From: Polaribacter sp.
Lineage (GTDB): Bacteria; Bacteroidota; Bacteroidia; Flavobacteriales; Flavobacteriaceae
Length of the DNA: 64,000 nt
NCBI GenBank assembly: GCA_018663625.1
Contig: JABJPX010000001.1
Coordinates: 1 to 64,000, forward strand
Direction: 5' to 3'
Positions 30,388-63,070 of the stretch are shown here, piece by piece (within the stretch, counting starts at the first letter, position 1; each line of letters starts with the position of its first letter). A program made the position numbers and the translations under genes. Below the pieces are notes generated by a model. The model did no database searches. It was not told the origin of the DNA and saw only the letters and a list, made by a program, of their open reading frames with translations.

Positions 30388-30446
30388 TGTAGAAGTTAGA
30401 AATATAGTATTGTTCTTACTATTTAATTTCTTCAAAAAGAATTGCA

Positions 30447-32316: not shown

Positions 32317-32356
32317 AAATACTTGAATTTTAAAGTACCTTAAAATTCAAGTATTT
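32317..32356. terminator. Hairpin terminator shared by azurin and DUF1080 gene
   Basis: A perfect 17-bp inverted repeat, AAATACTTGAATTTTAA and its complement, around a 6-base loop AGTACC. The right arm is the last codons and stop of the convergent DUF1080 gene (ILEF-stop). It has A-run/T-run flanks suited to termination from either side. Confidence 0.7.
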
Positions 32357-33143: not shown

Positions 33144-33176
33144 TGTTTTGTCGCTTTTATGTTTTTAAAATTTAGA

Positions 33177-33776: not shown

Positions 33777-33788
33777 AATTTATGAGTA

Positions 33789-35486: not shown

Positions 35487-35577
35487 AATTGTCTTTGTAA
35501 TTAATTGATATGTTGTTTTTATTGCTATATTATTGTCAGATTCTAAATTAAATCTACTATAAATTATTGATTTATCA

Positions 35578-35597
35578 GCCAAATTAATTAATTTGGC
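35578..35597. promoter_or_regulatory. Perfect 20-bp palindrome between GMC and AraC genes
   Basis: GCCAAATTAATTAATTTGGC, a perfect inverted repeat with GC ends, in the divergent region 92 bases from the GMC ATG and 26 bases before the likely GTG start of the AraC-type regulator. The position suits an operator controlling both genes. No binding protein can be assigned. Confidence 0.5.
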
Positions 35598-35622
35598 AAC
35601 TTATAATGTTCAATATTATTCA

Positions 35623-36642: not shown

Positions 36643-36739
36643 TTTTTTTGTTTAAAATTTTTCACTGAATAATTATACACACAGTTTTATGTTTCATTTT
36701 ATAATTTTCAACCTCATAAATTTTAAATAATCAAATCTA

Positions 36740-37708: not shown

Positions 37709-37744
37709 AATAGTAGAAGTTTTGAAAATAAAAAATAGAATACG

Positions 37745-38974: not shown

Positions 38975-38982
38975 AAAAAGAA

Positions 38983-40125: not shown

Positions 40126-40239
40126 GGGTTTGTTTATAATTATTGCTAACTAATAATATAATTTATAAGTTCAATGGATAAAAGAGAGGTATTGGTATTT
40201 TCTTTCTCTTTTAGAACTTTTAATAATCCAAAATAAAAG

Positions 40240-41295: not shown

Positions 41296-41297
41296 GT

Positions 41298-45222: not shown

Positions 45223-45233
45223 TAAAAATAGAA

Positions 45234-47081: not shown

Positions 47082-50000
47082 ATGAATTTAAAACTTGGAT
47101 TTCTTTCAATACTTTTTTTACTTTTTTTTTCTTGTGATCAAGAAGAAAAAGTAAAAACATTATTTGAATTACAAGAGAATACAGGTGTTCAGTTTGCAAA
47201 TACATTAGTGGAAACAGAAAATTTGAATCCATACACCTATAAAAATTTTTATAATGGTGGTGGTGTTGCTTTGGGTGATATTAATAACGATGGATTATTA
47301 GACATTTATTTTTCTGGAAATCTTGTTGAAAATCAATTGTACCTGAATAAAGGGGATTGGAAGTTTGAAAACATCACTAAAAAAGCAGGGGTCTTAAGTA
47401 CAGATAATTGGTCTTCTGGTGTTACTTTTGTAGATATCAATTCTGATGGATTGTTAGATATTTACGTTTGTCAAGCAGGCCCTCCAAGAGATAACAACAG
47501 ACACAATCAACTTTTTATCAATAATGGTAATTTAACTTTTAGTGAACAGTCTAAAAAATATGGTTTAGATATTACAGGATTAGGCGTACAAGCCAATTTT
47601 TTCGACTATGACAAAGATGGAGATTTGGATTGTTATCTTTTAAACAATTCAATTCGTTCTGTTGGAAACTATGATTTAATCAAAGATCAACGGGATAATG
47701 CCACTGAAAAAGGAAATAAATTACTGCGAAATGATAATAATGTTTTTGTTGATGTTACCAAAGAAGCTCATATTTATTCCAGTGCTATTGGATTTGGTTT
47801 AGGTATCACAATCAGTGATTATAATAAGGATACTTGGCCCGATATTTTTATTTCAAATGATTTTTTTGAAAGAGATTACCTTTATGTAAATCAGCAAGAT
47901 GGCACTTTTAAGGAACAACTAACGGAACAATTTCATTCCATTTCAATGGGTTCTATGGGAGCAGATGCAGCAGATTTAAACAATGATGGAAACACGGATA
48001 TTATGGTGACTGAAATGTTACCAAAAACTATCCAAAGACAACGTACCAAAACCTTATTTGAATCGTGGGATAAGAATGCATTGGCGGTAAAAAATGGGTA
48101 TCATTACCAGTTTTCAAGAAATGCGTTACATCAAAATATGGGCGATGACACCTTTTTCGAAATAAGCCGTTTTTCTGATGTTCATGCATCCGAATGGAGT
48201 TGGTCTACTTTACTATTTGATGCAGACAATGACGGATTAAAAGATATCTTTATTAGTAATGGTATTTATAAAGATTTGTTAGATAGAGATTATTTAACCT
48301 ACATGGCCAATGAGGATCAAATAAAAGAGTTGATTCAAACGGACAAACAAGTCATGAAAAAATTAATTGATAGAATGCCTTCAAAAGCAGTTGCCAATGC
48401 AATTTATAAGAATACTGGCGATTTTCAATTTAAAGATCAAACAATAGAATGGGGCCTACAAAAACCCAGTTTTAGTAATGGAACTGCTTATGGCGATTTA
48501 GACAATGATGGCGATCTTGACCTCGTTGTAAATAATGTAAATATGCCTGCATTTATTTATAAAAATACGACAGATAGCACAAAGCAAAAAAGCATTACTG
48601 TTCAACTAAAAGGAACATTAAAAAACACCCAATCAATTGGATCAAAAGTTGAAGTGTATTACAATAATAACAAATACAGTGTTTTAGAAAATTTCCCATC
48701 AAGAGGATTTCAAAGCTCGGTATCTCACCAACTTACTTTTGGTTTGGGCAATTGCATTAACATAGACAGTCTTAAAATAGAATGGGTTTCGGGTTCGGAA
48801 TCAACTTTTACAGCTTTAAAAACAAATTCAGTGTACACTTTTCAGGATCCTAATACGCCCTTAAAAGGAAATTCAAAAAAAGAAGTTTCACAAAGAAGTA
48901 CATTAAAATTAACCGAGGCAGTTGTGAATTTTAAGCACAAAGAAAACAAAGCTGTAGATTTTAATAGAGAACAGTTATTACCAGAAATGTACAATAATGA
49001 AGGCCCACACATTACCAGTGCAGATATTAATAATGATGGACAGCAAGATTTTTATATTGGAGGTGCTAAAGGGCAAACAGGAACACTTTTTATATCTCAA
49101 AAAGACCAATCGTATAAAGAACTATCAAAGCCTTTTCAAATGCATGCTTCTTCGGAAGATACAGATGCGCTCTTCTTTGATAGCGATAATGATGGTGATT
49201 TAGATTTGTATGTAACTAGTGGTGGAAAATCATTTTCAAAATATGATTATTCATTATATGATCGTTTGTATATTAATGATGGTAATAACAACTTTACAAC
49301 TTCTAAAACGGTCTTACCTTTTAAAACCCCTATTAGTACATCAACAGTAACTGCGTACGATTATGATCAAGATGGAGATCAAGATTTATTTGTTGGAGAA
49401 CGGTTTAAAGTAGAAACCTATGGTGTTCCTTGTGATGGTTATCTTTTAGAAAATAAAGGGAATAACCGGTACGAAATCTCAAACGAAAAAGCTCTAAAAA
49501 ATATGGGTTTGATCACGGATGCAGCATGGAAAGATCTTAATAATGATGGAAAAAAAGAACTTATTGTTGCAGGAGAATGGATGGCAATTCAGGTTTTTAA
49601 GGTTGCCTCAGGCAAATTAATTAACGCAACAAAAGAACTTGGATTGGAAAATACCAATGGATTCTGGAAAAAACTGCAGATTGTAGATGTAGATGCAGAT
49701 GGAGACCTCGATATTATTGCCGGAAATAAAGGTGAAAACACATTTTTTAAAAACACCATGAGAATGTATGTTGCTGATTTTGATAGCAACGGCACTGAAG
49801 AGTCTATTATTTGTTACAAAAAAGGGAACGATTACTATCCAATTGTTGACAGAGATGAACTAATAGGTCAAATTGCGAGTTTAAAACAAAAACTACTGTA
49901 TTATAAAGCGTATGCAAACGCTACAATGGGCTCTATCTTTACAAAAGAACAGCTAGATAAAGCAAGAGTTTTTGATGTGAATACAGTTCAGACAACTCTT

Positions 50001-50339
50001 TTTGTGAATACTGATAATAAATACATACCTGTAAAATTGCCGAATGAAATTCAATATTCAAATGTCACAGCAATTGCAACAACAGACGTCAATAAGGATG
50101 GGTATTTAGATCTTTTATTCGGAGGAAATCAATACCTTGTAAAACCGCAGTTTGGAAGACAAGATGCCTCTGAGGGCTGGTTACTCTATGGTAGTAAGCA
50201 GAAAAATATTTTTGAAAAAATAATATCATTACAAATAAAAGGACAAATAAGAGATTTTAATATCCTTGAAATAAATCATAAAAAACACCTATTAACAACA
50301 CTCAATAATGAAAGTTTACAAATTTATGAAATACAATAA
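47082..50339 (+). CDS. VCBS/FG-GAP repeat lipoprotein with UnbV/ASPIC domain (copy 1)
   Basis: A 1,085-residue lipoprotein (LLFFSC, C18). It has about seven calcium-loop repeats in the first half (GDINNDGLLDIY, VDINSDGLLDIY, DYDKDGDLDCY, SDYNKDTWPDIF, ADLNNDGNTDIM, DADNDGLKDIF, GDLDNDGDLDLV). A UnbV/ASPIC domain follows at about 505-590 (GSKVEVYY...RGFQSS...FGLG), then six further repeats (for example ADINNDGQQDFYIGGAKG and VDVDADGDLDIIAGNKG). This implies two beta-propellers around a central sandwich, with many Ca2+ sites, on the cell surface. Enzyme activity is not evident; binding or glycan handling next to SusCD is the likely role. The next gene overlaps its end. Confidence 0.92.
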   Translation: MNLKLGFLSILFLLFFSCDQEEKVKTLFELQENTGVQFANTLVETENLNPYTYKNFYNGGGVALGDINNDGLLDIYFSGNLVENQLYLNKGDWKFENITKKAGVLSTDNWSSGVTFVDINSDGLLDIYVCQAGPPRDNNRHNQLFINNGNLTFSEQSKKYGLDITGLGVQANFFDYDKDGDLDCYLLNNSIRSVGNYDLIKDQRDNATEKGNKLLRNDNNVFVDVTKEAHIYSSAIGFGLGITISDYNKDTWPDIFISNDFFERDYLYVNQQDGTFKEQLTEQFHSISMGSMGADAADLNNDGNTDIMVTEMLPKTIQRQRTKTLFESWDKNALAVKNGYHYQFSRNALHQNMGDDTFFEISRFSDVHASEWSWSTLLFDADNDGLKDIFISNGIYKDLLDRDYLTYMANEDQIKELIQTDKQVMKKLIDRMPSKAVANAIYKNTGDFQFKDQTIEWGLQKPSFSNGTAYGDLDNDGDLDLVVNNVNMPAFIYKNTTDSTKQKSITVQLKGTLKNTQSIGSKVEVYYNNNKYSVLENFPSRGFQSSVSHQLTFGLGNCINIDSLKIEWVSGSESTFTALKTNSVYTFQDPNTPLKGNSKKEVSQRSTLKLTEAVVNFKHKENKAVDFNREQLLPEMYNNEGPHITSADINNDGQQDFYIGGAKGQTGTLFISQKDQSYKELSKPFQMHASSEDTDALFFDSDNDGDLDLYVTSGGKSFSKYDYSLYDRLYINDGNNNFTTSKTVLPFKTPISTSTVTAYDYDQDGDQDLFVGERFKVETYGVPCDGYLLENKGNNRYEISNEKALKNMGLITDAAWKDLNNDGKKELIVAGEWMAIQVFKVASGKLINATKELGLENTNGFWKKLQIVDVDADGDLDIIAGNKGENTFFKNTMRMYVADFDSNGTEESIICYKKGNDYYPIVDRDELIGQIASLKQKLLYYKAYANATMGSIFTKEQLDKARVFDVNTVQTTLFVNTDNKYIPVKLPNEIQYSNVTAIATTDVNKDGYLDLLFGGNQYLVKPQFGRQDASEGWLLYGSKQKNIFEKIISLQIKGQIRDFNILEINHKKHLLTTLNNESLQIYEIQ

Positions 50340-50901
50340 TCGTACGCTCGTGTTTCTTATTTTAAGTACCTTATTCTTGTACTCTTGTAAATCCGATTAT
50401 ACAAAATTGGTAGAAAGAGAATTGGCAACGGGCATTAAAAATGATACTCTTGTGTACAATTTAAAGTTTGGTGACACGAGAAAAGAATTTTATGAAATCT
50501 GTTGGGATCTAAATAGCAAAGGATTGGTTACCCATGGTGGAAATAATAACTATGTAAAAAGGGTTTTACGTTCAAAAGATAGTACACTTAAAACTAAAGC
50601 CATTAAAATGCTGTTTTATGCACAATTTAGCAATCGAGACATCATCACAGGAATGAATTTAAAGTTCACTTATTCTGCTTGGGCTCCTTGGAACAAGACC
50701 TTACAAGCAGACAATCTATTTCCTGTAGTTCAAGACACAATACTAAAATGGTACCCTGGAAATCCTTTTATAGAAGTAAAAAAAGGACTTTTAGTAAAAA
50801 TCGATGGAAACCGACAAATACAAATTTCTAAAGAGTCGGAGAAAGACGTTGCCGTTTTAATAGAAAACTTAGCATACAAATACAACGCTTTAGTCAATTA
50901 A
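50326..50901 (+). CDS. Small lipoprotein of unknown family
   Basis: A 191-residue lipoprotein (MKYNNRTLVFLILSTLFLYSC, C21) that I cannot assign to a family. The mature part has a short charged helix (YTKLVERELATG), a segment with LKFGDTRKEFYEICWDLNSKGLVTHGG, a strand-rich middle (MLFYAQFSNRDIITGMNLKFTYSAWAPW) and a C-terminal helix (KDVAVLIENLAYKYNALVN). The ATG at 50326 is preferred over 50308 because it begins the signal sequence directly; it overlaps the preceding gene by 14 bases. It lies between two VCBS paralogues with 3 bases to the next start, so it is made together with them and probably serves the same complex. Confidence 0.82.
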   Translation: MKYNNRTLVFLILSTLFLYSCKSDYTKLVERELATGIKNDTLVYNLKFGDTRKEFYEICWDLNSKGLVTHGGNNNYVKRVLRSKDSTLKTKAIKMLFYAQFSNRDIITGMNLKFTYSAWAPWNKTLQADNLFPVVQDTILKWYPGNPFIEVKKGLLVKIDGNRQIQISKESEKDVAVLIENLAYKYNALVN

Positions 50902-50904
50902 GAA

Positions 50905-53900
50905 ATGAAAAATTTATATCCTCTTTTTTTATTGGTAATTCTGGCTGCTTGTACTAATAATACAGATCAGAAACCACAATTTGAACTCTTGTCAGCCGAA
51001 ACAACCAATGTTTTTTTTAGTAACGATTTAGTATCTACCACAGATTTTAATGTTTATCGTTATCGTAATTTTTACAACGGTGGCGGTGTTGCTATTGGTG
51101 ATGTAAACAATGATGGTTTGCAAGATATTTATTTAACTTCAAACTTAAATGAAAACAAGTTGTACCTAAATAAAGGGAGTTTTCAATTTGAAGATGCTAC
51201 AGAAACTGCTAATGTTGGTGGGACAAAAGCATGGTCTACAGGTGTTTCAATGGTCGATATTAATGCCGACGGACTTTTAGATATTTATGTATGTAATTCA
51301 GGAGACGTTGCTGGAGATAACAAACAAAATGAGTTGTTTATCAACCAAGGCGATGGTACATTTACAGAAGAAGCGATGGCTTATGGCCTGGCTGATTTAG
51401 GATTTTCTACACATGCATCATTCTTTGATTATGATAAAGATGGGGATTTAGATGTGTATTTACTAAATAATTCTTACCAAGCGATTGGAAGTTTTAACCT
51501 AACCAAAAACGAGCGTCCAGTGCGCGATGTATTAGGAGGTGATAAGTTATTTGAAAATAATAACAATCACTTTACGGATGTGAGTGAAAAAGCAGGCATT
51601 TATGGCAGTGTCATTGGATTTGGATTGGGTGTTACCGTTAGTGATATAAATAACGATGGCTGGGAAGACATTTATGTATCTAATGACTTTTTTGAAAGAG
51701 ATTACCTCTATATCAATCAGCAAAATGGAACCTTTAAAGAACAATTAACCAATGCAATTAATTCGATTAGTGGTGCTTCTATGGGTGCCGATGCAGCCGA
51801 TATTAACAATGATGGTTATAGCGATATTTTTGTAACAGAAATGTTGCCAAACGAATACGAACGATTGAAAACCGTTACTACCTTTGAAGACTGGAATAAG
51901 TACCAATACAATCTTAAAAACGACTATTACCATCAGTTTACCCGAAATATGTTGCAATTAAATAACCGCAATGAAACATTTAGTGAAGTGGGGCGATTTA
52001 GTGGGGTAGATGCTTCTGACTGGAGTTGGGGTGCTCTCTTTTTTGACATGAACAATGATGGGGCTAAAGATTTATTTATTGCAAATGGGATTTATAAAGA
52101 TTTAACAAATCAAGATTATTTGCGCTATGTTTCCAACGAAGAAGTGTTGATGTCTATTGTAAAAGACAATAAAGTAGACTACAAAAAATTGATTGATATT
52201 ATTCCTTCAAACAAAGTAAAAAATCATGCGTATATCAATAAAAGTGACCTAACTTTTGAACGTGAAAATAATGGATTAAATACAGAAGGATTTTCCAACG
52301 GTGCTGCCTATGGTGATTTGGACAATGATGGTGATTTAGATTTGGTGGTAAACAACGTAAATATGCCGTTGTTTATTTATAAAAATAATTTAGATACTAC
52401 CAAATCCAACTATCTTAAATTAGTTTTAAAAGGAGAAGGAGCAAATACAAATGCGATTGGAGCCAAAATAAAATTAACTACAAAAAAGGGTGATTATTAT
52501 TTAGAGCAACAACCTGTTAGAGGTTTTCAATCTTCTATGGACAACCGTCCTAATTTTGGTTTTCATGGTAAGGATAATGTTTCGTTAACCGTAACTTGGC
52601 CTTCTGGGAAAAGAACACAACTAGAAAATGTTGTTGTGAATAAAACGTTGACGCTTTCTGAAAAAGATGCAGAATTAGTTTCAAAAGACCAACGTTTAAT
52701 TGCAAAAAATATATTTGTAAAAGACAATAAGACCATTCAGTTTGTCCACAAAGAAAACAATTACATTGATTTTAATGTAGACCGATTATTGCCTTTTATG
52801 AGAAGTACAGAAGGACCAAAAATATCGGTGGCAGATGTAAATAATGACGGTACTAAAGATCTTTTTATTGGAGGTTCTAAAAACAATATTGCTTCTTTAT
52901 TCATTCAAAAAGAAAATACTTTTAAAGCTGTAAAAACAACTGTTTTTGACAAACAACGAGCTGCTGAAGATACCGAAAGTGCCCTTTTTGATGCGGATGG
53001 TGATGGAGATTTGGATCTATATGTTTGTAGTGGAAGTATCGAAACATCTATCTACAGTGCTAATTATTTAGACAAACTATATTTAAATGATGGTAAAGGA
53101 AATTTTACAGTCTCCAAACAACTTTTGCCGATTGCCAATAAATATCATGCTTCGAGTACCGTTACGGTTGCAGATATTGATAATGATAATGATCTGGATT
53201 TATTTGTTGGAGAAAGAGCCATTCCGAATTCTTATGGAGTTCCGGGTTCAGGTTTTTTATTAATAAATGACGGATTAGGTAATTTTACAGAGCAATCTGA
53301 AGGTTTAGCACCTCAATTGAAAAATTTAGGCATGATTACAGATGCCATTTTTGTAGATATCAATAAAAATGGCTACCAAGATTTGATAGTAGTCGGTGAA
53401 TTTATGGGGATTGAAGTTTTTAAAAATGAAAATGGAAGATTTACAAAATTAGAAGATAGTCCGTTGTCAGCGATTAAAGGTTGGTGGAAAACTATTGAAA
53501 AAGGCGATTTAGATGCGGATGGAAATGTAGATTTGATCCTTGGAAATCATGGTTTGAATAGCAGATTTAAAGCCTCTAAAAAAAATCCGATTAAATTATT
53601 ACTAAATGATTTTGATAATAACGGATTTCTAGATCCAATTCTTTGTTTTACAGGAGAGAACGAAAATGTATATCCGTATGCACTCCGACACAATTTAATA
53701 GATCAATTAAAATATTTAAGTAAAAAGTACCCAGATTACGCATCTTTTAAATCGGCAACTATTTCGGACATTTTTACCAAAGAACAACTTCAGGAAACCA
53801 CTATTTTAGAAGTAAATACATTAAGTTCAATACTTCTTATTAATAAAGGTGATTATCAATTTGAAGTTCAAGAATTACCTCAAGAAACACAGTTTTCACC

Positions 53901-54168
53901 CGTGTATGCGATAGCAGTGTCTGACTTTGACAAAGACGGAGATCAAGACCTCTTTTTAGGTGGGAATTTAGACGGTGTTCAACCAGAGTTTGGTCGCTAT
54001 GACGCATCCTTTGGAACATATTTAGAAAATATTGGGGCACATCAATTTAAATTTCATCAAACAGGAAGTGGTATAAAAGTAAAAGGACAGGTACGAGATC
54101 TTAAAATAATTAAAGACCAATTATTTATCTCCAAAAACAGCGATTCATTAGAAGTATATAACTATTAA
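50905..54168 (+). CDS. VCBS/FG-GAP repeat lipoprotein with UnbV/ASPIC domain (copy 2)
   Basis: A 1,087-residue lipoprotein (LVILAAC, C16) colinear with copy 1. Repeats include GDVNNDGLQDIYLTSN, VDINADGLLDIYVCNSG, DYDKDGDLDVYLLNNS, SDINNDGWEDIYVSNDF, ADINNDGYSDIFVTEMLP, DMNNDGAKDLFIANGIY and GDLDNDGDLDLVVNNVN. The UnbV/ASPIC domain is at about 510-590 (NAIGAKIKLTTKKGDYYLEQQPVRGFQSSMDNRPNFGF), followed by a second repeat set with FDADGDGDLDLYVCSGS and DFDKDGDQDLFLGGN. It is closest to copy 1, sharing whole segments such as SNDFFERDYLY and FKEQLT, so these two probably duplicated most recently. Copy 3 begins one base after its stop. Confidence 0.92.
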   Translation: MKNLYPLFLLVILAACTNNTDQKPQFELLSAETTNVFFSNDLVSTTDFNVYRYRNFYNGGGVAIGDVNNDGLQDIYLTSNLNENKLYLNKGSFQFEDATETANVGGTKAWSTGVSMVDINADGLLDIYVCNSGDVAGDNKQNELFINQGDGTFTEEAMAYGLADLGFSTHASFFDYDKDGDLDVYLLNNSYQAIGSFNLTKNERPVRDVLGGDKLFENNNNHFTDVSEKAGIYGSVIGFGLGVTVSDINNDGWEDIYVSNDFFERDYLYINQQNGTFKEQLTNAINSISGASMGADAADINNDGYSDIFVTEMLPNEYERLKTVTTFEDWNKYQYNLKNDYYHQFTRNMLQLNNRNETFSEVGRFSGVDASDWSWGALFFDMNNDGAKDLFIANGIYKDLTNQDYLRYVSNEEVLMSIVKDNKVDYKKLIDIIPSNKVKNHAYINKSDLTFERENNGLNTEGFSNGAAYGDLDNDGDLDLVVNNVNMPLFIYKNNLDTTKSNYLKLVLKGEGANTNAIGAKIKLTTKKGDYYLEQQPVRGFQSSMDNRPNFGFHGKDNVSLTVTWPSGKRTQLENVVVNKTLTLSEKDAELVSKDQRLIAKNIFVKDNKTIQFVHKENNYIDFNVDRLLPFMRSTEGPKISVADVNNDGTKDLFIGGSKNNIASLFIQKENTFKAVKTTVFDKQRAAEDTESALFDADGDGDLDLYVCSGSIETSIYSANYLDKLYLNDGKGNFTVSKQLLPIANKYHASSTVTVADIDNDNDLDLFVGERAIPNSYGVPGSGFLLINDGLGNFTEQSEGLAPQLKNLGMITDAIFVDINKNGYQDLIVVGEFMGIEVFKNENGRFTKLEDSPLSAIKGWWKTIEKGDLDADGNVDLILGNHGLNSRFKASKKNPIKLLLNDFDNNGFLDPILCFTGENENVYPYALRHNLIDQLKYLSKKYPDYASFKSATISDIFTKEQLQETTILEVNTLSSILLINKGDYQFEVQELPQETQFSPVYAIAVSDFDKDGDQDLFLGGNLDGVQPEFGRYDASFGTYLENIGAHQFKFHQTGSGIKVKGQVRDLKIIKDQLFISKNSDSLEVYNY

Positions 54169-54169
54169 T

Positions 54170-57100
54170 ATGATAAAAAAAATCATTTTTACAGCACTTA
54201 TTTTGGTAGGCTGCTCAAAAGAGCAAGTTGTAGAGAAAACCACAGAAAAAGAACTCTTTTTGGAAGTGAATGCTTCTGCTTCGGGTATTGATTTTTCAAA
54301 TGATTTAACAGCAAAAGGAGACTTAAATATTATCGAATATCTCTATTATTATAATGGAGGTGGAGTTTCTTTAGGTGATATTAATAATGATGGTTTGGAT
54401 GATATTTACTTAACAGCAAATCAAAAACCAGATAAATTGTACCTCAATCTTGGGAGCTTAAAGTTTAAAGATATTTCATTGTCAAGTAAAATAACTCAGG
54501 ATAGTACATGGTCTACAGGGGTGACGATGGTGGATATTAATAACGACGGACACTTAGATATCTATGTTTGTAAAGTTGGAAATTACAAAGGATTAAAGGC
54601 GAAAAATGAGTTGTATATCAATAATGGAGATGCTACTTTTCAAGAAAGTGCAAAAGCGTACGGATTGGACTTTTCAGGATTTTCTACACAGGCTTCTTTT
54701 TTTGATTATGATCAAGATGGCGATATGGACATGTATTTGTTAAATCACTCTGTGCATTCAACGTATTCTTATGGAAACATTAAATTGAGAAAGAAGCCTG
54801 CAACTTTTTCGGGCGATATTTTGTTTGAAAATAAAATTGAAACAGGAAAGATTAAATTTGAAGATGTTACTAAAAAAGCAGGAATCTATAATAGTGCACT
54901 TGGATACGGTTTGGCAATTGCAACATCTGATGTAAATAATGATGGGCTATTGGATATTTATGTAGGTAATGATTTTCATGAAAATGATTACCTATACATC
55001 AATAACGGAAACAAAACCTTTACCGAGTCTAACGCTGACTATTTTAATAGCACTTCACGATTTACGATGGGAGTTGATGTAGCAGACATTAATAACGATG
55101 CACAGTTGGATTTGATTACCTTAGACATGATGCCCTATAAAGCTGACGTGTTTTTGAAATCTGGCGGAGAAGATTCTGATAAAATTAATGAAATAAAAAA
55201 GGCATTTGGATTTCAACAGCAATATGCAAGAAATCATTTGCAAATAAATAAAGGAAGCCATTTTTCTGATGTGGCGCTTCAAACTGAAACTCATGCAACA
55301 GATTGGAGTTGGTCACCGTTATTATTGGATTATAATAATGATGGATTGCAAGATATTTATATTACAAATGGGATTTATAAGCGTCCAAATGATTTAGATT
55401 ACGTAAATTATATAAGCAATGTGGATTTTGCAAAATACGAAGCAAATCAGCAGGATACCTTAGAGAAAAAATTAATAGAAACAATGCCAATGTTGGGATT
55501 GTCAAATGTCTTATTTCAAAACAACGGAAATTTAGACTTTCATAAAACAGCCATCAATGCTGCCAAAAAAACGAGTTACTCTAATGGTGCTGCTTATTCA
55601 GATTTAGATTTAGATGGCGATTTAGATCTTGTGGTAAACAATCTGAATGATAAAGCCACTTTGTTAGAAAACAAGACAATAGGGGCAAACTATCTGACCC
55701 TTCAACTATTCGAAAAAAATAAAAGTCTCAATACCAATGGGGCCAAAGTATATCTCTATGCAGGTGATAATGTTTTTTATAAAGAACAAACTACCGTTCG
55801 AGGATTCTTATCAAGTTCTACAAGAAAAGTACATTTTGGATTGGGAGCTATTACCGCTGTAGATTCTTTAGTAGTGTTATGGAATCATGGGACCAAAACA
55901 CTTCAAAAAGAAGTTTCCATAAATAAAGAAATCACCCTTAATAAAGAAGAAACTTCAGTTCATACTTTTTCACCTTTTAAGAAAGTGATACAAGAAGAAT
56001 TTTTATACACACATATCGAAAATAATTTCTTAGACTACGAAAGAGAAGCATTAATGCCAGAGAAATTATCTACAGAAGGGCCTTCTGTGGTTCAAGCTGA
56101 TTTTAATGGTGATGGCTTAAAAGATCTTTTTATTGGAGGTGCCAGAAACCAAGAACCTGTATTGTATTTTCAAACAAAACAGGGAAAATATACACCAATA
56201 AATACGCCAGTATTTGAACTTGATAAAATGTACGAAGATGTAGACGCCATTGCTTTTGATATTGATAACGATGCTGATTTAGACATCTATGCACTCAGTG
56301 GTGGAAATGACTTCAAAGAAGGCCACTCAATGTTAGAAGACCGTGTTTATTTGAATGACGGTAAAGGAAATTTCACAAAACTTGAAGCAAGATTATTAGC
56401 AACCAATGGGGGGAGCGTTTCTTCTTTTGATTTTAATAAAGATGGGTTTCAAGATTTATTTATTGGAAATCGATCCATTCCTGAAGCCTATGGTTTAACA
56501 CCGTTTAGCTTTATACTTAAGAATACAGGTAATAACAATTTTGAAATTGCAGCAAAAAAACGTTTTGGAATGATTACCGATAGCAAATGGGCCGATTTAG
56601 AAAATGATGGACAAGTCGAACTAATCCTTGCTGGAGATTGGATGCCGATTACTGTTTATTCATATACAAAAGAAGGACAGTTCGAAAACCAAACGAAAAA
56701 ACTAGGCTTAGATAAAACCCATGGAATGTGGAATGTTTTGGAAATAAACGATATTAATAAGGATGGATTGTTAGATATTTTTGGAGGAAATACAGGAACT
56801 AATTTCAAGTGGAAAGCTTCTGAGAAAAATCCAGTAAAAATTTATTTAGATGACTTTGATGGAAACAAACAATTGGATCAATTGATCTTTTACAACTATT
56901 TTGGTATCGATGTCCCATTTGCATCCAAAGATAAATTGGTGCAACAAATTCCAAAGTTAAAAAAGCAATTTTTAAAATACGCTGCTTTTTCAGAAGTACA
57001 AACTATAGAAGATCTAAAATTAAAAGATGAAAAATCGATTTTAGAAATTAAATATATTTACGAACTGCGTTCCATGCTATATGTAAATAGTGCGAGTGGT

Positions 57101-57394
57101 TTTTCACCAATATCCCTTCCGAAAGAAGCACAATTAAGTACAATAGAAGACATTCACGTAACAGGGAATGATATATTTTACACAGGAAATTATGATGGAT
57201 TTGTAACTGAACTGGGAAACAGTATGTCCAACTCTGGAGGTGTTTTACATTTCTCTGAAACGGGAATTACCTCAAAAAAATCATTGCAATTGCCAAAAGA
57301 TTTTCTTGGAAGAAAAATTATGAAATTAAACGAACAAGAGTACTTAGTGCTCTCTAATAATGGAAAATCATACATTTTAAATATAAAAAAATAA
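54170..57394 (+). CDS. VCBS/FG-GAP repeat lipoprotein with UnbV/ASPIC domain (copy 3)
   Basis: A 1,074-residue lipoprotein (ALILVGC, C15) with the same two-propeller layout but more divergent. Calcium loops include GDINNDGLDDIYLTAN, VDINNDGHLDIYVCKVG, DYDQDGDMDMYLLNHS, SDVNNDGLLDIYVGNDF, ADINNDAQLDLITLDMMP and DLDLDGDLDLVVNNLN. The central UnbV/ASPIC segment is NTNGAKVYLYAGDNVFYKEQTTVRGFLSSSTRKVHFGLG near 530-570. Where copies 1 and 2 read SNDFFERDYLY it reads GNDFHENDYLY, and several loop residues change, suggesting a different ligand. The haloperoxidase-like gene starts 4 bases after its stop. Confidence 0.92.
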   Translation: MIKKIIFTALILVGCSKEQVVEKTTEKELFLEVNASASGIDFSNDLTAKGDLNIIEYLYYYNGGGVSLGDINNDGLDDIYLTANQKPDKLYLNLGSLKFKDISLSSKITQDSTWSTGVTMVDINNDGHLDIYVCKVGNYKGLKAKNELYINNGDATFQESAKAYGLDFSGFSTQASFFDYDQDGDMDMYLLNHSVHSTYSYGNIKLRKKPATFSGDILFENKIETGKIKFEDVTKKAGIYNSALGYGLAIATSDVNNDGLLDIYVGNDFHENDYLYINNGNKTFTESNADYFNSTSRFTMGVDVADINNDAQLDLITLDMMPYKADVFLKSGGEDSDKINEIKKAFGFQQQYARNHLQINKGSHFSDVALQTETHATDWSWSPLLLDYNNDGLQDIYITNGIYKRPNDLDYVNYISNVDFAKYEANQQDTLEKKLIETMPMLGLSNVLFQNNGNLDFHKTAINAAKKTSYSNGAAYSDLDLDGDLDLVVNNLNDKATLLENKTIGANYLTLQLFEKNKSLNTNGAKVYLYAGDNVFYKEQTTVRGFLSSSTRKVHFGLGAITAVDSLVVLWNHGTKTLQKEVSINKEITLNKEETSVHTFSPFKKVIQEEFLYTHIENNFLDYEREALMPEKLSTEGPSVVQADFNGDGLKDLFIGGARNQEPVLYFQTKQGKYTPINTPVFELDKMYEDVDAIAFDIDNDADLDIYALSGGNDFKEGHSMLEDRVYLNDGKGNFTKLEARLLATNGGSVSSFDFNKDGFQDLFIGNRSIPEAYGLTPFSFILKNTGNNNFEIAAKKRFGMITDSKWADLENDGQVELILAGDWMPITVYSYTKEGQFENQTKKLGLDKTHGMWNVLEINDINKDGLLDIFGGNTGTNFKWKASEKNPVKIYLDDFDGNKQLDQLIFYNYFGIDVPFASKDKLVQQIPKLKKQFLKYAAFSEVQTIEDLKLKDEKSILEIKYIYELRSMLYVNSASGFSPISLPKEAQLSTIEDIHVTGNDIFYTGNYDGFVTELGNSMSNSGGVLHFSETGITSKKSLQLPKDFLGRKIMKLNEQEYLVLSNNGKSYILNIKK

Positions 57395-57398
57395 AAAG

Positions 57399-58754
57399 AT
57401 GAAGAATTCAATTTATAGTTTCACAAAGCGACTCTTTTTTGTGGCTTTAATTGGTGTTTTGACACAATGTCAGAAACCATCAACACCTATTATAATTAGT
57501 CCCGATACCTATCATGCTTCTGTAGATAAGGTAACAAATATTATGATTCATGATATTTTTTCACCTCCTGTTGCAAGTCGAATTTTTGCATATCCTAACG
57601 TTGCCGCTTATGAGATATTGGTGCAAAAAGATACCACGTATGCCTCTTTAGTTCATACCGTAAATGGTTTGAATTTCATGCCGAAAATGGATGACAATAA
57701 AAAGATAAATGCAAACGTAGCGGCTTTAATTGCCCACATGGAGGTGAGTAAAATATTGATCTTTTCTGAAGAGAAACTAGATGTTTTAAAAGATAGTTTG
57801 TACCAGAAATGGCAAAACACCAACGAACAAGAATTTTTAGCCTCTAAAACCTATGCTTTAAAAGTGGTTTCAAATATTAAAAAGTGGATGGATGCAGACA
57901 ATTATAATCAAACGCGAACCATGCCTAAATATACAGTAGACACAGACGACGCATCAAGATGGCAACCAACACCTCCTGCATATATGGACGCAATTGAGCC
58001 TCACTGGAATAAAATTAGACCTTTTTTATTACAATCTGCAGACCAGTTTAAGCCATTACCTCACCCAGAATTTTCATTAGAAAAAGGATCACAGTTTTAC
58101 AAAGAATTGTTAGAAGTATACACTATTAGTGAAAACATTACTAAGAAAGGAGACCAATCTGAAGAAGTTGCCATTGCACAATTTTGGGATTGTAACCCTT
58201 ATGTTTCTGTAACCAGAGGGCATTTTATGTTTGCTACTAAGAAAATAACTCCAGGAGCACACTGGATTGGAATTGTGAAAATAGCCGCCAAGAAAACAAA
58301 TGCAAATTTAATGCAAACCGTAAATGCCTATACCAAAACATCATTAGCAATTGCTGATGCTTTTATTAGTTGTTGGGATGAAAAATACAGGACAAATTTA
58401 ATTCGCCCAGAAACGTTAATTAATCAAAATATTGATGCAGATTGGTTGCCTATTTTACAAACACCTCCTTTCCCAGAGTATACAAGTGGTCACTCTGTGG
58501 TTTCAGGTGCTGCCTCTGTTGTTTTAACAGCCCTCTTTGGAGATAATTTTGCTTTTGATGACGATACAGAATTACAATTTGGGTTGCCGATACGTAGTTT
58601 TAGTTCTTTTTACGATGCCTCAAGTGAAGCCGCAATTAGTAGAATGTATGGTGGAATTCATTATAGAGCAGCTGTCGATAATGGATTGGAACAAGGGAAA
58701 AATTTAGGTCATTTTATCGTTGATAAAATCGACACCAACAAAGAAGTTAATTAG
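57399..58754 (+). CDS. Vanadium-dependent haloperoxidase / PAP2-fold lipoprotein
   Basis: A 451-residue lipoprotein (LIGVLTQC, C24) of the PAP2/vanadium haloperoxidase superfamily. The vanadate/phosphate pocket is complete: K329 then six residues to R336-P337 (KYRTNLIRP), S363-G364-H365 in EYTSGH, and R415 six residues before H421 in SRMYGGIHYR. Canonical haloperoxidases have PSGH; here T replaces P, as in many bacterial relatives of uncertain activity. It may be a haloperoxidase or an acid phosphatase of surface substrates. It follows the third VCBS gene by 4 bases and precedes GH13 by 29 bases, in the same operon. Confidence 0.9.
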   Translation: MKNSIYSFTKRLFFVALIGVLTQCQKPSTPIIISPDTYHASVDKVTNIMIHDIFSPPVASRIFAYPNVAAYEILVQKDTTYASLVHTVNGLNFMPKMDDNKKINANVAALIAHMEVSKILIFSEEKLDVLKDSLYQKWQNTNEQEFLASKTYALKVVSNIKKWMDADNYNQTRTMPKYTVDTDDASRWQPTPPAYMDAIEPHWNKIRPFLLQSADQFKPLPHPEFSLEKGSQFYKELLEVYTISENITKKGDQSEEVAIAQFWDCNPYVSVTRGHFMFATKKITPGAHWIGIVKIAAKKTNANLMQTVNAYTKTSLAIADAFISCWDEKYRTNLIRPETLINQNIDADWLPILQTPPFPEYTSGHSVVSGAASVVLTALFGDNFAFDDDTELQFGLPIRSFSSFYDASSEAAISRMYGGIHYRAAVDNGLEQGKNLGHFIVDKIDTNKEVN

Positions 58755-58783
58755 CAATATTAAAGTGTTTTATCAATAAGAGT

Positions 58784-60478
58784 ATGAAGCCCAACGATAG
58801 AAATGATACACCAGTAATTTTAGAAAAAGATGCGAAAGCATGGTGGAAAGAAGGTGTTTTATACCAAATTTATCCTCAGAGTTTTAAGGATACAACAGGT
58901 GATGGTTTTGGTGATTTTCAGGGGGTTATTCAAAAACTCGACTACCTCGAAAGTTTAGGAATTACTATGGTTTGGATGAATCCTTTTTTTGGTTCTCCAT
59001 TGGTAGACAATGGATATGATGTAAGTAATTATACAGCCATTCACCCAAGATATGGAACAATGGAAGATTTTCAAGAAATGCTTGATGGTCTTCATTGTAG
59101 AGGAATTAAATTTGTATTAGATGTAGTTGTAAATCATAGTAGTAATGAGCATCCATGGTTTCAGCAATCGCGAAGTTCTCGAGACAATCCGTATCGCGAT
59201 TATTACCATTGGTGGCCTGCAGAAAATGGGACTCCACCATTTAGAGACAGTATTTTTGATCCTGAGGGAGCTTGGCAATTCGACCAACAAACAAATGCTT
59301 ATTATTTGCATTATTTTGCCAAAGAACAACCCGATTTGAATTGGGAAAATCCAAAAGTAAGACAAGAAATTTATGCTATTATGAAGTTTTGGGCAGAGAA
59401 AGGAGTTGATGGTTTTCGAATGGATGCTTTTCAGTATGCAAGTAAAGACACCACCTTTCCAGAATGGCCAAAAGGACACGAGAAAGAATATGACAAGTGG
59501 TATGGTATGCGACCACAATTGCATGATTATTTGAAAGAAATGTACACTGAGGTGATTGAGCCTTATGACTTATTCGCAGTAGCAGAAGGAGCTGGAACCT
59601 CATTTAAAGATGCTCATGATTTAGTGGATGCAGATAGAAATGAGTTGCAAGTGGCGTATCATTTTGATTGCAGAGATATTTCAAAAGATTTAGAAGGGTA
59701 CCAACTTTCTGAATTTAAAGCTGTTTTCACAAAATGGGATGCTGCTTTTAAAAACAATGGTTGGTTAGCTATTTATCTTTCAAACCATGATGTTGCGCGA
59801 CTTATAGATCGATATGGGAATACCGATGCAGCCTTTAGAACTCCGTCTGCACAAATGTTGAATACCTTTTTGTTGAGCATGAGGGGAACACCTTATACCT
59901 ACTATGGAGATGAATTGGGAATGACCAATATAGACATGCCAAAAATAGAAGAATATGTAGATGTTTCTGCGATTGGCGATTATAATAGAGCAAAAGCAGA
60001 AGGAGAGGATATGGATCAATTTATGAAGAAATTGAATTTCAATTCTCGTGAAAATGCACGTACACCAATGCAATGGGATTCTACTAAAAACGGAGGTTTT
60101 ACAGAAGGGAAACCATGGAGAAAAGTAAATGATAATCATCAAACAATTAATGTTGTAGCTCAAAATAAAGACCCTAAAAGTATTTTAAATCATTTTCGAA
60201 AGATGGTGAAACTTCGAAAAGACAATCCAGTTTTAGTTTATGGTCAATATCAAATACTACAAGAAAGACATTCTGAAATTTATGCATATACCAGAACTTT
60301 AGACCAACAGCAGGTGCTTGTACTCTTGAATTTTTCAAAAAAACAAGCAACAATCACATTAGAGGAAACGATAAAGACGGGAACTCTTTGGATTAATAAT
60401 TATGATAGGTTGGATGCTAAAGAGGGACAAATTACCTTACAACCTTACCAAGCCATAATTTGTGAATTAATAAACTAA
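58784..60478 (+). CDS. GH13 alpha-glucosidase (cytoplasmic)
   Basis: A 564-residue GH13 enzyme resembling oligo-1,6-glucosidase and trehalose-6-phosphate hydrolase types, releasing glucose from short alpha-glucosides. No signal peptide. Key motifs: WWKEGVLYQIYPQSFKDTTGDGFGD near 20-44, DVVVNHSS at 113-120, the nucleophile D214 in DGFRMDAF, acid/base E268 in FAVAEGAG and stabiliser D336 in LSNHDVAR. The C-terminal beta domain runs from about 470 to 564. Its place with a disaccharide-type transporter and a trehalase suggests that trehalose, maltose or kojibiose-like sugars enter the cell intact; which one is uncertain. Confidence 0.93.
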   Translation: MKPNDRNDTPVILEKDAKAWWKEGVLYQIYPQSFKDTTGDGFGDFQGVIQKLDYLESLGITMVWMNPFFGSPLVDNGYDVSNYTAIHPRYGTMEDFQEMLDGLHCRGIKFVLDVVVNHSSNEHPWFQQSRSSRDNPYRDYYHWWPAENGTPPFRDSIFDPEGAWQFDQQTNAYYLHYFAKEQPDLNWENPKVRQEIYAIMKFWAEKGVDGFRMDAFQYASKDTTFPEWPKGHEKEYDKWYGMRPQLHDYLKEMYTEVIEPYDLFAVAEGAGTSFKDAHDLVDADRNELQVAYHFDCRDISKDLEGYQLSEFKAVFTKWDAAFKNNGWLAIYLSNHDVARLIDRYGNTDAAFRTPSAQMLNTFLLSMRGTPYTYYGDELGMTNIDMPKIEEYVDVSAIGDYNRAKAEGEDMDQFMKKLNFNSRENARTPMQWDSTKNGGFTEGKPWRKVNDNHQTINVVAQNKDPKSILNHFRKMVKLRKDNPVLVYGQYQILQERHSEIYAYTRTLDQQQVLVLLNFSKKQATITLEETIKTGTLWINNYDRLDAKEGQITLQPYQAIICELIN

Positions 60479-60516
60479 ATCAACAAACAAATACAAAAAC
60501 TAACACAAACACAACC

Positions 60517-61830
60517 ATGAAACTAAAGAAACCCAGTTTGACCTTTTGGCAAATTTTTAATATGAATGTTGGATTCTTAGGAATTCAATATAGTTTTGGA
60601 TTACAGCAAACTGCTATTAATCCAATTTTCTTATATCTAGGAGCTCCAGAAGAAATGTTACCCATTTTGAATATTGCAGGTCCAGTAACTGGATTACTTG
60701 TACAACCCATAATTGGTGCAATGTCAGATAAAACATGGTCTTCTCGTTGGGGAAGAAGAAAACCGTATTTTTTAATAGGCGCGTTGTTGGGTAGTTTGTG
60801 CTTGTTCGTATTTCCACACAGTCCTGTACTATGGTTTGCCGTTGGTTTACTATGGATTTTAGATGTTGGAAACAATATGGCTATGGAACCTTACAGAGCT
60901 TTTGTAGGTGATAAATTACCAGAAAAGCAATTAAGTCTAGGTTTTCAAATGCAAAGCTTATTTGTTGGTGCTGGTATCTTGTTAGCAAACGGTTCTATTG
61001 TTTTATTTCAATATTGGTTTGGAGGAGAATCAGTTGAAATGGCAGCAACGATACCTCAGTGGCTGTATTACTCTTTTTATATAGGTGCATTTTTATCATT
61101 AACTACCATTTTATGGTCGGTTTTTAAAACCCCTGAAATTCCACCTTCAGAGGAAGAATTTGTCGAAATTAATGCAATTAAGAGTTTATCTTTAAGTCAA
61201 CGAATATCTCAACCATTTTCAGAAATTGCAGAAGCCATTAAAAAAATGCCAAACTTTATGTGGAGAATTAGTGCTGTTTATCTTTTTCAGTGGTATGCGC
61301 TCTTTATTTATTGGCAATTTACAACTCCATTATTCAAATTAACATTAGGTTTTTCTACTTCAGAAGCAGCTTCACAAGCAGCTAAAATGAGTTTAACGTA
61401 TAATATTGTTACAATGGTGGTTGCATTGGCATTAGTGCCATTAACATTGCGTTTTGGCGGAAAAAAAATATATGCATTTAGTTTAATTGGAACTGCAATC
61501 GCGTTGTTTGCCATTCCTTATATTTCTGATCCAATGTTAGTAATGGTACCAATGATTTTATTTGGAATTGGTTGGGCAGCGATGATGGGAATTCCTTACA
61601 CAATGGTTTCTAAAATTGTACCTCAAGATAAAAGAGGTGTCTATATGGGTATTTTAAATATGATGATTGTAATTCCAATGTTTATTCAAACCTTAACTTT
61701 TGGACCAATCTATAAATACTTACTTGGCGGAAATGCTATAAATGCAATGTTGTTTGCTGGTGTATTTTTTGCTTTAGCAGCCATTTTAGCGTTTCGTTTA
61801 AATGAGCGTAAATCAGTAATTGAAGACTAA
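60517..61830 (+). CDS. MFS transporter of the SLC45/GPH disaccharide type
   Basis: A 437-residue inner-membrane transporter with 12 helices. The start FWQIFNMNVGFLGIQYSFGLQQTAINPIFLYLGA, the loop SDKTWSSRWGRRKPYFLIGA, and NMAMEPYRAFVGDKLPEKQ are typical of the bacterial SLC45-like proteins that carry sucrose or maltose in symport with H+. It follows GH13 by 38 bases, and the next MFS gene starts 10 bases after its stop, so it should feed the cytoplasmic GH13 and trehalase with an intact disaccharide. No LacI-type site is seen upstream. Confidence 0.91.
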   Translation: MKLKKPSLTFWQIFNMNVGFLGIQYSFGLQQTAINPIFLYLGAPEEMLPILNIAGPVTGLLVQPIIGAMSDKTWSSRWGRRKPYFLIGALLGSLCLFVFPHSPVLWFAVGLLWILDVGNNMAMEPYRAFVGDKLPEKQLSLGFQMQSLFVGAGILLANGSIVLFQYWFGGESVEMAATIPQWLYYSFYIGAFLSLTTILWSVFKTPEIPPSEEEFVEINAIKSLSLSQRISQPFSEIAEAIKKMPNFMWRISAVYLFQWYALFIYWQFTTPLFKLTLGFSTSEAASQAAKMSLTYNIVTMVVALALVPLTLRFGGKKIYAFSLIGTAIALFAIPYISDPMLVMVPMILFGIGWAAMMGIPYTMVSKIVPQDKRGVYMGILNMMIVIPMFIQTLTFGPIYKYLLGGNAINAMLFAGVFFALAAILAFRLNERKSVIED

Positions 61831-61840
61831 TTTACTTTAT

Positions 61841-63070
61841 ATGAAAAATATAGGCATTAAAATTTCACTTTACCTTAATTACTTTGTTTTTGCAATCCTT
61901 TTAAATAGTGTCGGAATTGTTATTTCTAAATCAATTAATGTATATTTTGTAACTGAATCTCAAGCTTCTGTTTTGGAGGCATTTAAAGATTTGCCTATTG
62001 CAATAGTTTCTTTCTTTATTGCCTCATTCTTACCTCGTTTTGGTTATAAAAAAGGAATGTTAGTAGGTTTAGCAATTGTATTTTTTGGTTGCTTACAAAT
62101 GGTTTTTGGGAATGCTTTTCTTTATACTAAAATACTGTTTTTAAGTATTGGTGTAAGTTTTGCACTTATTAAACTATCTGTTTATTCTCTAATAGGAATT
62201 ATAACCAATTCTAAAAAAGAACATGCTGCTTTAATGAGTTCTATTGAAGGTTTCTTTATGGTTGGTATCGCATTCGCATACATATTATTCCCAGCGTTTT
62301 ATTCTGACGATGTAAACTCCTGGTTGAACGTTTATTATGTATTGTGTGTACTGATCGCTATTTCTTTTGTTTTTTTGCTTTTTTCTAAGGTTGAATATCA
62401 AGTAGAATCTTCTGCTTCAACTTTAAAGGAAGATCTAATACAATCTGTTAAATTAATCATTGTGCCGCTCGTTTTGGTTTTTATTATATCGGCATTTTTG
62501 TTTGTAATGATAGAACAAGGAATTATGACATGGTTACCAAGGTTTAACGAAAAAATATTTTTGTTTTCTGAAAATCTAAGCGTACAAATGGCAGTTATAT
62601 TTGCCTTGTCTTTAGCGCTTGGTAGATTTATAGCTGGTTTTCTAACTAAAAGAATGCCATGGGTATATCTCGTAATAATCTGTATCGTTATTTCTGGTGG
62701 TATTTTATTAGGTGTGTTGCCGCAGTTAAGTGAAAATATTGAAACATTATCAATAATTGAAAACACTACTGATGTTCCTGTTCTTGGATTTATCTTACCT
62801 TTAATTGGCTTATTTATTGCTCCAATTTATCCGCTTTTAAATTCAACAGTTTTAAGTTCATTACCAAAAAGTTTACATTCACCAATGTCTGGTTTAATCA
62901 TAATTTTTTCTGCTATAGGAGGCACAATTGGTTCAAGAGTTATAGGTGAATTATTTGAAAGTATTGGCGGAGCAAATGCATTTTACTTTTTGTTAATTCC
63001 GATGAGTTTACTAATTGTTTTTGTGCTACTTATTGATAGAATGTCTAAAAAACAAGAAGTTACTGTATGA
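61841..63070 (+). CDS. MFS transporter, sugar permease-like
   Basis: A 409-residue 12-helix MFS transporter (MKNIGIKISLYLNYFVFAILLNSVGIVI...). It has ESQASVLEAFKDLPIAIVSFFIASFLPRFGYKKGMLVGL covering the 2-3 loop and a mirrored ALGRFIAGFLTKRMPW in the second half. It is not of the SLC45 type and fits the broader FHS/sugar-permease group. The ATG at 61841 is chosen; a TTG at 61820 would overlap the preceding stop and add 7 residues. Its stop overlaps the trehalase ATG (ATGA), implying coupled translation. Possibly imports trehalose or moves glucose; substrate open. Confidence 0.88.
   Translation: MKNIGIKISLYLNYFVFAILLNSVGIVISKSINVYFVTESQASVLEAFKDLPIAIVSFFIASFLPRFGYKKGMLVGLAIVFFGCLQMVFGNAFLYTKILFLSIGVSFALIKLSVYSLIGIITNSKKEHAALMSSIEGFFMVGIAFAYILFPAFYSDDVNSWLNVYYVLCVLIAISFVFLLFSKVEYQVESSASTLKEDLIQSVKLIIVPLVLVFIISAFLFVMIEQGIMTWLPRFNEKIFLFSENLSVQMAVIFALSLALGRFIAGFLTKRMPWVYLVIICIVISGGILLGVLPQLSENIETLSIIENTTDVPVLGFILPLIGLFIAPIYPLLNSTVLSSLPKSLHSPMSGLIIIFSAIGGTIGSRVIGELFESIGGANAFYFLLIPMSLLIVFVLLIDRMSKKQEVTV

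What the first reader, a model, noticed from the sequence alone, without database searches (positions are those of the whole stretch)
47082..63070. Undescribed-looking system: three VCBS/UnbV lipoproteins, a haloperoxidase-like lipoprotein and trehalose enzymes in one operon
About 17 kb of genes with gaps of 1-38 bases or overlaps encode three ~1,080-residue double-propeller lipoproteins, a small unknown lipoprotein, a PAP2/vanadium-haloperoxidase-fold lipoprotein, GH13, two MFS carriers and GH37. The lipoproteins make up two-thirds of the coding length yet no classical surface glycosidase is present. They may form a calcium-dependent surface complex that captures or releases an alpha-glucoside, with the haloperoxidase-like enzyme acting as phosphatase or oxidant on the polymer. 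All functional statements beyond the domain content are inference.
Basis: partly seen in the sequence, partly recalled or inferred. Interest (0 to 1): 0.72.

Follow-up and report, generated by a model that had tools for sequence, protein, structure and literature searches.

The report
Surface lipoproteins paired with bacterial iodoperoxidase
A sugar-uptake operon of a marine bacterium carries a probable surface enzyme of the kind that oxidises iodide, and comparison across many genomes suggests that this enzyme works with a particular large beta-propeller lipoprotein, a partnership I found no description of in the open papers I could search.

Summary
The gene list is right. The block is SusC-SusD-VA-smLP-VB-VC-VHPO plus sugar genes that run past the window and include a GH13 lipoprotein, so "no surface glycosidase" is an edge effect. 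The PAP2 protein is an ortholog of the Zobellia vanadium iodoperoxidase (4CIT, E 5e-200) with the same active-site stretches. The unit is conserved: of 145 distinct VHPO proteins in fetched stretches, 113 have a VCBS/UnbV gene (V) directly upstream, 2 directly downstream. The V genes form position-specific clades in two diverged operon types; nearby sugar genes change (alpha-glucoside, xylose). One V clade (P1/VS) looks like a dedicated partner: in the genus 38 of 38 genomes with it have VHPO, against 9 of 128 without; in the family 37 of 38 against 25 of 111. In 12 genomes, this one included, VS is unlinked, yet VHPO is present elsewhere; in one, a VHPO remnant lies behind an intact VS. Three relatives lack the SusCD/V/sugar block at the same site but keep VHPO; VS and VHPO are under purifying selection. 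Best reading: a surface halide-oxidising pair attached to SusCD sugar operons. Activity, contact and peroxide source are untested; relatedness is uncorrected.

The parts
42241..45222 (+). SusC-type TonB-dependent receptor
   Evidence: Pfam Plug, TonB barrel, CarbopepD_reg_2
45234..46844 (+). SusD-type lipoprotein
   Evidence: Pfam SusD_RagB, SusD-like_3
47082..50339 (+). VA: VCBS/FG-GAP + UnbV double-propeller lipoprotein, 1085 aa
   Evidence: Pfam; own clade of 11 in the tree
50308..50901 (+). smLP: small lipoprotein, no family; found only in type I operons among the loci examined
   Evidence: no Pfam or NCBIfam hit; seven orthologs 45-57% identical; model pLDDT 81 without a confident PDB match
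50905..54168 (+). VB: VCBS/UnbV lipoprotein, 1087 aa
   Evidence: Pfam; own clade of 16
54170..57394 (+). VC: VCBS/UnbV lipoprotein next to VHPO, 1074 aa
   Evidence: Pfam; own clade of 17; model pLDDT 81.7, best PDB match CRTAC1 9etn
57399..58754 (+). VHPO: vanadium-dependent haloperoxidase (iodoperoxidase type), predicted lipoprotein
   Evidence: 4cit/4usz E 5e-200 with shared active-site stretches; PAP2
58784..60478 (+). GH13, oligo-1,6-glucosidase / phosphotrehalase-like, no signal peptide seen by eye
60517..61830 (+). MFS carrier, weakly related to sucrose/proton symporters
61820..63070 (+). MFS carrier
63067..64000 (+). GH37 trehalase, start of a 630-aa gene that continues past the window

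Best explanation
The block is a SusCD outer-membrane sugar-uptake operon that carries a halide-oxidising surface module. VHPO is a lipid-anchored vanadium iodoperoxidase. A calcium-type double-propeller lipoprotein of the V family is its working partner: the P1/VS clade in most genomes, and in window-type (type I) operons probably VC next to it and/or VS encoded elsewhere in the genome. The partner would hold VHPO at the outer surface, with or without SusCD; VA and VB would be SusCD-side lipoproteins. VHPO would use hydrogen peroxide from outside or from sugar oxidation to oxidise iodide to hypoiodous acid, which removes peroxide and arms the cell surface. Co-transcription would tie this to growth on particular sugars; here the cassette fits trehalose, sucrose and other alpha-glucosides. 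Shown: gene order, orthology, active-site residues, co-occurrence, trans cases, remnant, purifying selection. Inferred: contact between V and VHPO, surface position, halide specificity, co-transcription, benefit to the cell.
For: Match to 4cit with shared KYR.NLIRP, YTSGH and SRMYGGIHYRAA stretches; the Z. uliginosa match to 4cit follows three V genes. V directly upstream of 113 and directly downstream of 2 of 145 distinct VHPOs. Two operon types, V only 34-46% alike, both carry VHPO, 59-69% alike between types. Type I VC (50% id or more) in 19 other family genomes: 12 adjacent to VHPO, 4 on the same contig within about 15 kb (one of these on the other strand), 2 with VHPO on another contig, 1 without. 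VS/P1: genus 38/38 VHPO+ against 9/128 without VS; family 37/38 against 25/111. Control: genomes with other V genes but no VS, 9 of 47 VHPO+. VS unlinked to VHPO in 12 genomes, all VHPO+. VHPO remnant behind intact VS in L272. dN/dS against the window genome 0.08-0.10 for VS (6 genomes) and 0.09-0.18 for VHPO (5 genomes).
Against: No activity, interaction or expression data. VHPO occurs without VS/P1 in 9 of 47 genus and 25 of 62 family genomes; 15 of 145 VHPOs have no same-strand V in the fetched stretch, L056 and L113 having xylose-type genes there instead. One family genome, G047, has the P1-type V and no VHPO. Three to five of the genomes that keep VHPO alone show that it does not need the operon's V genes. 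Genomes are related and the counts are not corrected for that; the planned species-tree test could not be run. In 28 of the 38 genus cases V and VHPO are adjacent, where co-occurrence is partly trivial. In type I operons the V next to VHPO (VC) groups with the first V of type II, not with P1/VS, so the neighbour is not always the same clade. V genes are common beside SusCD without VHPO. No peroxide-producing enzyme was identified in the operon.
Confidence: 0.5

Rival explanations
1. An ordinary alpha-glucoside (trehalose-type) utilisation locus in which VHPO and the V proteins are a generic surface kit; VHPO sits there only for regulation (for example peroxide or algal-defence detoxification while feeding) and has no physical partner among the V proteins.
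For: V genes from VHPO-negative genomes lie behind SusC-SusD in 17 of 20 loci; trehalose-like PULs of North Sea Flavobacteriia are in print (PMC6298971, passages); VHPO is present without SusCD/V/sugar genes at the same site in G285, G246, G304.
Against: VS is kept in trans in those same three genomes and was not found without VHPO in the genus; adjacency survives with reversed gene order in G042 and G045.
Confidence: 0.25
2. The V proteins bind a glycan and VHPO makes hypohalous acid that attacks the polymer or its phenolic decorations, opening it for SusCD; an oxidative glycan-degrading locus.
For: Recurrent V-V-V-VHPO order behind SusCD in two operon types; a GH13 lipoprotein further along.
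Against: Cassettes for quite different sugars lie with the same core; two-gene VS-VHPO loci without SusCD in the stretch (L255, L256, L258, L261, L262) and solo VHPO loci show no SusCD beside them.
Confidence: 0.12
3. The PAP2 protein is a phosphatase acting on phosphorylated sugars.
For: The PAP2 family also holds phosphatases (general knowledge).
Against: Nearest solved relative is a vanadium haloperoxidase at E 5e-200 with the same active-site stretches.
Confidence: 0.05

Closest known systems
Vanadium iodoperoxidase of Zobellia galactanivorans (PDB 4CIT/4USZ)
   Same: Near full-length match, same active-site stretches, similar lipoprotein-type N-terminus
   Different: Its own gene neighbourhood could not be read here (PMC4249250 not held); no V partner was seen in the texts and listings I had
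CRTAC1 / ASPIC-UnbV FG-GAP proteins (PDB 9etn)
   Same: Best sequence and fold match of the V proteins, over about half the length
   Different: V proteins are twice as long and have a lipoprotein signal; 18% identity in the structural match
Trehalose-like alpha-1,1-glucan PULs of North Sea Flavobacteriia (PUL103, PUL116; PMC6298971)
   Same: SusCD with a predicted trehalose-type substrate in marine Flavobacteriaceae; another MAR_2010 isolate (L043, MAR_2010_72) carries this operon
   Different: The main text holds no haloperoxidase, UnbV, VCBS or FG-GAP (word counts); those two PULs were not compared directly and supplements were not seen
Iodine accumulation by Arenibacter sp. C-21 (PMC5064120)
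   Same: Flavobacterium that takes up iodine with a glucose, oxygen and calcium requirement and has at least five homologs of 4USZ (whole text read); three Arenibacter records here have V and VHPO in one run (L082, L107, L112)
   Different: No gene was linked to the phenotype; C-21 itself was not examined here

Membership tests
Vanadium-dependent haloperoxidase, iodoperoxidase type | Sequence orthology to a characterised member | tested here: met
   4cit E 5e-200 over residues 15-445
Vanadium-dependent haloperoxidase, iodoperoxidase type | Vanadate-site motifs (KX6RP, SGH, SR-X5-H; motifs recalled) | tested here: met
   KYRTNLIRP at 329, YTSGH at 361, SRMYGGIH at 414, aligned with 4cit
Vanadium-dependent haloperoxidase, iodoperoxidase type | Vanadate binding and halide oxidation | not testable with these tools
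   needs protein
SusCD polysaccharide utilisation locus | Tandem susC-susD | tested here: met
   42241-46844
SusCD polysaccharide utilisation locus | Carbohydrate-active enzymes in the same gene run | tested here: met
   GH13, GH37 and, past the window, GH13 lipoprotein and sucrose-phosphorylase-like GH13
SusCD polysaccharide utilisation locus | Local regulator | tested here: inconclusive
   LacI divergent from susC in relative L121; in the window AraC and LacI genes lie about 6 and 11 kb upstream of susC
ASPIC/UnbV FG-GAP (CRTAC1-like) proteins | FG-GAP repeats plus UnbV domain | tested here: met
   Pfam above cut-off in all three
ASPIC/UnbV FG-GAP (CRTAC1-like) proteins | Propeller fold | tested here: met
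   model of VC, 9etn E 1e-27; VA and VB not modelled
Trehalose-like PUL103/PUL116 | SusC/SusD orthology to those PULs | not tested
   their sequences were not fetched
PAP2 phosphatase acting on sugars | Phosphatase activity | not testable with these tools
   orthology argues against it

The most novel reading that the evidence does not exclude
Vanadium iodoperoxidases of many Flavobacteriaceae are two-component surface enzymes: a dedicated calcium-type double-propeller lipoprotein (P1/VS clade) depends on VHPO and works with it in cis or in trans, and this module is built into two diverged SusCD operon types, linking sugar uptake to halide oxidation and possibly explaining glucose- and calcium-dependent iodine uptake in such bacteria.
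Probability: 0.4. Interest if true: 0.75.

Novelty: new variant of a known kind. Interest (0 to 1): 0.6.

Why it matters
Some marine Flavobacteria accumulate iodine, but what their iodoperoxidases do at the cell, and with which partners, is open as far as I could read. A partner protein that is kept when the enzyme sits elsewhere in the genome gives a direct genetic handle. It also offers a first specific role for one clade of the common, uncharacterised VCBS/UnbV lipoproteins of Bacteroidota, and a testable link to the published glucose, oxygen and calcium requirement of iodine uptake in Arenibacter.

Tried and rejected
Phosphatase reading: set aside on the match to 4cit. Sugar-specific reading: set aside because the cassette changes between genomes. 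"No surface glycosidase": window edge. smLP: fold search gave no confident match (best 4ygt, E 4e-3, TM 0.33), so no function is claimed. Mirror-tree and surface-residue analyses of V against VHPO were considered and not done.

Papers: eleven searches were sent; one search failed on wording; ten ran. Searches (UnbV, SusD, haloperoxidase; FG-GAP, haloperoxidase) returned none. The listings show no title or abstract start that describes V next to VHPO, but several were capped (28: 20 of 45; 50: 15 of 101; 51: 15 of 82; 97: 10 of 63; 100: 15 of 346). Only open-licence papers are held. Seen: PMC5064120 whole text; passages of PMC9296495, PMC8490876, PMC6298971, PMC10643221, PMC11871015. Not held: the Fournier 2014 paper on the Zobellia enzyme, which may describe its neighbours, and the 2007 paper on strain C-21.
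Full report
What is there. The stated genes are all present with the stated domains. The run starts at SusC (42241) and SusD (45234) and passes the window end. On the same contig (L116) it goes on through GH37 (630 aa), a GH13 protein with a lipoprotein signal (472 aa), MFS, a PfkB kinase and a GH13 protein just under the sucrose-phosphorylase cut-off (329 against 334 bits), up to a MutS-domain gene on the other strand. From smLP to VHPO the gaps are 3, 1 and 4 bases; VA and smLP overlap by 32; 237 bases separate SusD and VA.

The enzyme. The PAP2 protein matches the vanadium-dependent haloperoxidase 4cit/4usz at E 5e-200 over residues 15-445 and shares the stretches KYR.NLIRP, YTSGHSVVSGAASVVL and AAISRMYGGIHYRAA. 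That these are the vanadate-site motifs I take from knowledge; that the Zobellia enzyme is an iodoperoxidase I take from a paper title seen in reference lists. A Zobellia uliginosa VHPO that follows three V genes (L114) matches 4cit from end to end with 910 bits. A loose lipobox pattern was found in 113 of 117 VHPO ORFs, duplicates included; the window protein has LTQC, which is atypical.

Conservation. 430 relatives of VHPO were found in genome contigs by pattern, of which the best 80 were kept; 62 of 149 family genomes have a match at E 1e-10, two of them (G085, G110) only distant ones. Pooling fetched stretches and counting distinct VHPO proteins, 113 of 145 have a V gene on the same strand directly upstream (within 250 bases), 2 directly downstream (G042, G045), 10 have one 1.9-15.5 kb upstream, 5 are cut by an end of the stretch, and 15 have none. 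Of those 15, L051 has only 1.1 kb upstream, L294 is a distant relative, L299 has the V operon on the other strand, and L283 and L301 show part of a V at the end of the stretch. The pool is not a random sample: it holds the closest 80 relatives, 37 family genomes, and genus genomes some of which were fetched because they carry VS.

Two operon types. A FastTree tree of 228 V proteins (249 collected, 18 duplicates and 7 outside 1000-1200 aa dropped, 4 added) gives clades that follow the position in the operon: type I VA (11), VB (16), VC (17); type II P1 next to VHPO (69), P2 (64), P3 (48, four of them labelled P2 by my counting), each with support 1.0. Compared with the window, type II V proteins are 34-46%, SusC 29-41% and VHPO 59-69% identical; type I VHPOs range from 46 to 72%. 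smLP was found only in type I. VC, the V next to VHPO in type I, groups with P3, not with P1. So VHPO was joined twice, or once with later rearrangement; this is not decided.

The cassette changes. MFS1-MFS2-GH37 follow VHPO in the window and in L042, L043, L044, L115, L240, L241, L242, L248 and L250, with GH13 too in L043, L248 and L250; L251 shows the same genes downstream of the G070 VHPO. Xylose isomerase and xylulokinase genes with an SSF carrier stand before VHPO in L056 and, by blast, in L301; genes of the same sizes in L098, L113, L132, L142 were not tested one by one. L124 has an SSF carrier and a molybdopterin oxidoreductase before its V genes. L292 has a protein before VHPO whose N-terminus looks like a glycerol kinase by eye (not tested).

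Reciprocity. Type I VC at 50% identity or more occurs in 19 other family genomes; 12 are adjacent to VHPO, 4 share the contig within about 15 kb (G018, G011, G065 on the same strand, G095 on the other), 2 have VHPO on another contig (G037, G035), and 1 (G081, 66% complete) has none. V genes in general are not tied to VHPO: 20 V loci, chosen from the upper part of the hit list in VHPO-negative genus genomes, had SusC-SusD upstream, with at most one other gene between, in 17.

The partner clade. The window's genome has one more full-length V, on contig C56, which I call VS; it groups with type II P1. In 166 genomes of the genus VS/P1-type V (E 1e-250 or better) is in 38 and VHPO (E 1e-30 or better) in 47. 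All 38 have VHPO; 119 genomes have neither; 9 have VHPO only. Of the 9, G199, G265 and G269 are distant 35-37% matches; G226 and G235 have a V cut by a contig end directly before VHPO, and G273 a cut VC; G225, G238 and G239 have VHPO behind other genes with a V further off. Among the 47 genomes that have some V but not VS, these 9 have VHPO; among 81 with no V, none. In the family sample 37 of 38 genomes with this V have VHPO, and 25 of 111 without it do, among them the type I genomes. The exception is G047, with no VHPO in the search and none on the fetched contig. Fisher values are 3e-29 and 3e-17 but ignore relatedness, and in 28 of the 38 genus genomes V and VHPO are neighbours.

Trans cases. 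In ten genus genomes (G000, G281, G285, G304, G246, G211, G164, G204, G245, G280) and two others (G070, G068) VS lies at least 200 kb from VHPO or on another contig, and VHPO is present. By similarity these may be about four lineages; that number is my estimate. Five genus genomes show what may be the older state, a two-gene VS-VHPO run at site 1, between sdhA/sdhB (named by eye) and an RNase H-purN pair (Pfam on L117): L255, L256, L258, L261, L262. In nine of the ten genus trans genomes site 1 holds VS without VHPO (L117, L271, L272, L275-L278, L280, L281; in L278, L280 and L281 one to three extra ORFs stand between VS and the RNase H gene); in L279 other ORFs separate VS from sdhB. In L272 pieces of a VHPO (about residues 2-164) lie right behind the intact VS, and that genome, G211, has an intact VHPO in its type I operon; the same tblastn found nothing in the other nine stretches.

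VHPO without the operon. Loss is the likelier direction because G211, G164 and G204 have the full operon, but it was not tested on a tree. VS is intact elsewhere in all three. dN/dS against the window genome is 0.08-0.10 for VS and 0.09-0.10 for VHPO in these three (Nei-Gojobori). G245 and G280 have VHPO beside a cupredoxin, with no SusCD or V in the fetched stretch.

Structure. The VC model (pLDDT 81.7, pTM 0.83) matches CRTAC1 9etn first (E 1e-27, about half the length). VA, VB and VC carry 11, 13 and 9 strict D-x-[DN]-x-[DN]-G-x-x-D motifs. smLP has no confident fold match.

Reading. These facts fit a VHPO that works with a V protein and is useful without sugar uptake, but that also sits in SusCD-V-V-V operons of two kinds. 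The halide, the peroxide source and the benefit are inference. The Arenibacter report of glucose-, oxygen- and calcium-dependent iodine uptake with at least five 4USZ homologs (PMC5064120, whole text) is a natural place to test it; three Arenibacter records here carry V and VHPO (L082, L107, L112), though C-21 itself was not examined. A vIPO3 gene of Zobellia was up on the brown alga A. nodosum compared with alginate (PMC9296495, passage); whether it belongs to this group was not tested.

Limits. The statement that the pair is not in print rests, over open-licence papers and partly capped listings.

Noticed in passing
32340-42083: A cluster around an AraC gene that fits the 3-keto-glucoside route: two 3-keto-disaccharide hydrolase-family genes, Gluconate_2-dh3, a GMC-like oxidoreductase (sub-threshold hits), two AP_endonuc_2 genes, GFO_IDH and a nucleoside-type symporter. 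Part of it also lies directly before SusC in G211, G164 and G204 (L243-L245).
   Followed up: partly
26561-31478: GH32, sugar porter, PfkB and LacI genes (sucrose or fructan type). This LacI is 54-56% identical to the LacI that stands divergent from susC in relatives L119 and L120, so the operon's regulator may have been moved away here.
   Followed up: partly
31787-32308: Cupredoxin gene whose homolog stands directly beside VHPO in G245 and G280, in G245 with a LacI gene too (L236, L237); a possible electron carrier or a chance survivor.
   Followed up: no
L114:11353-12252: A gene of about 300 aa follows VHPO in many type II operons, with only a sub-threshold GyrI-like match.
   Followed up: no
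L216, L221, L233: V genes without recognised SusCD directly upstream.
   Followed up: no
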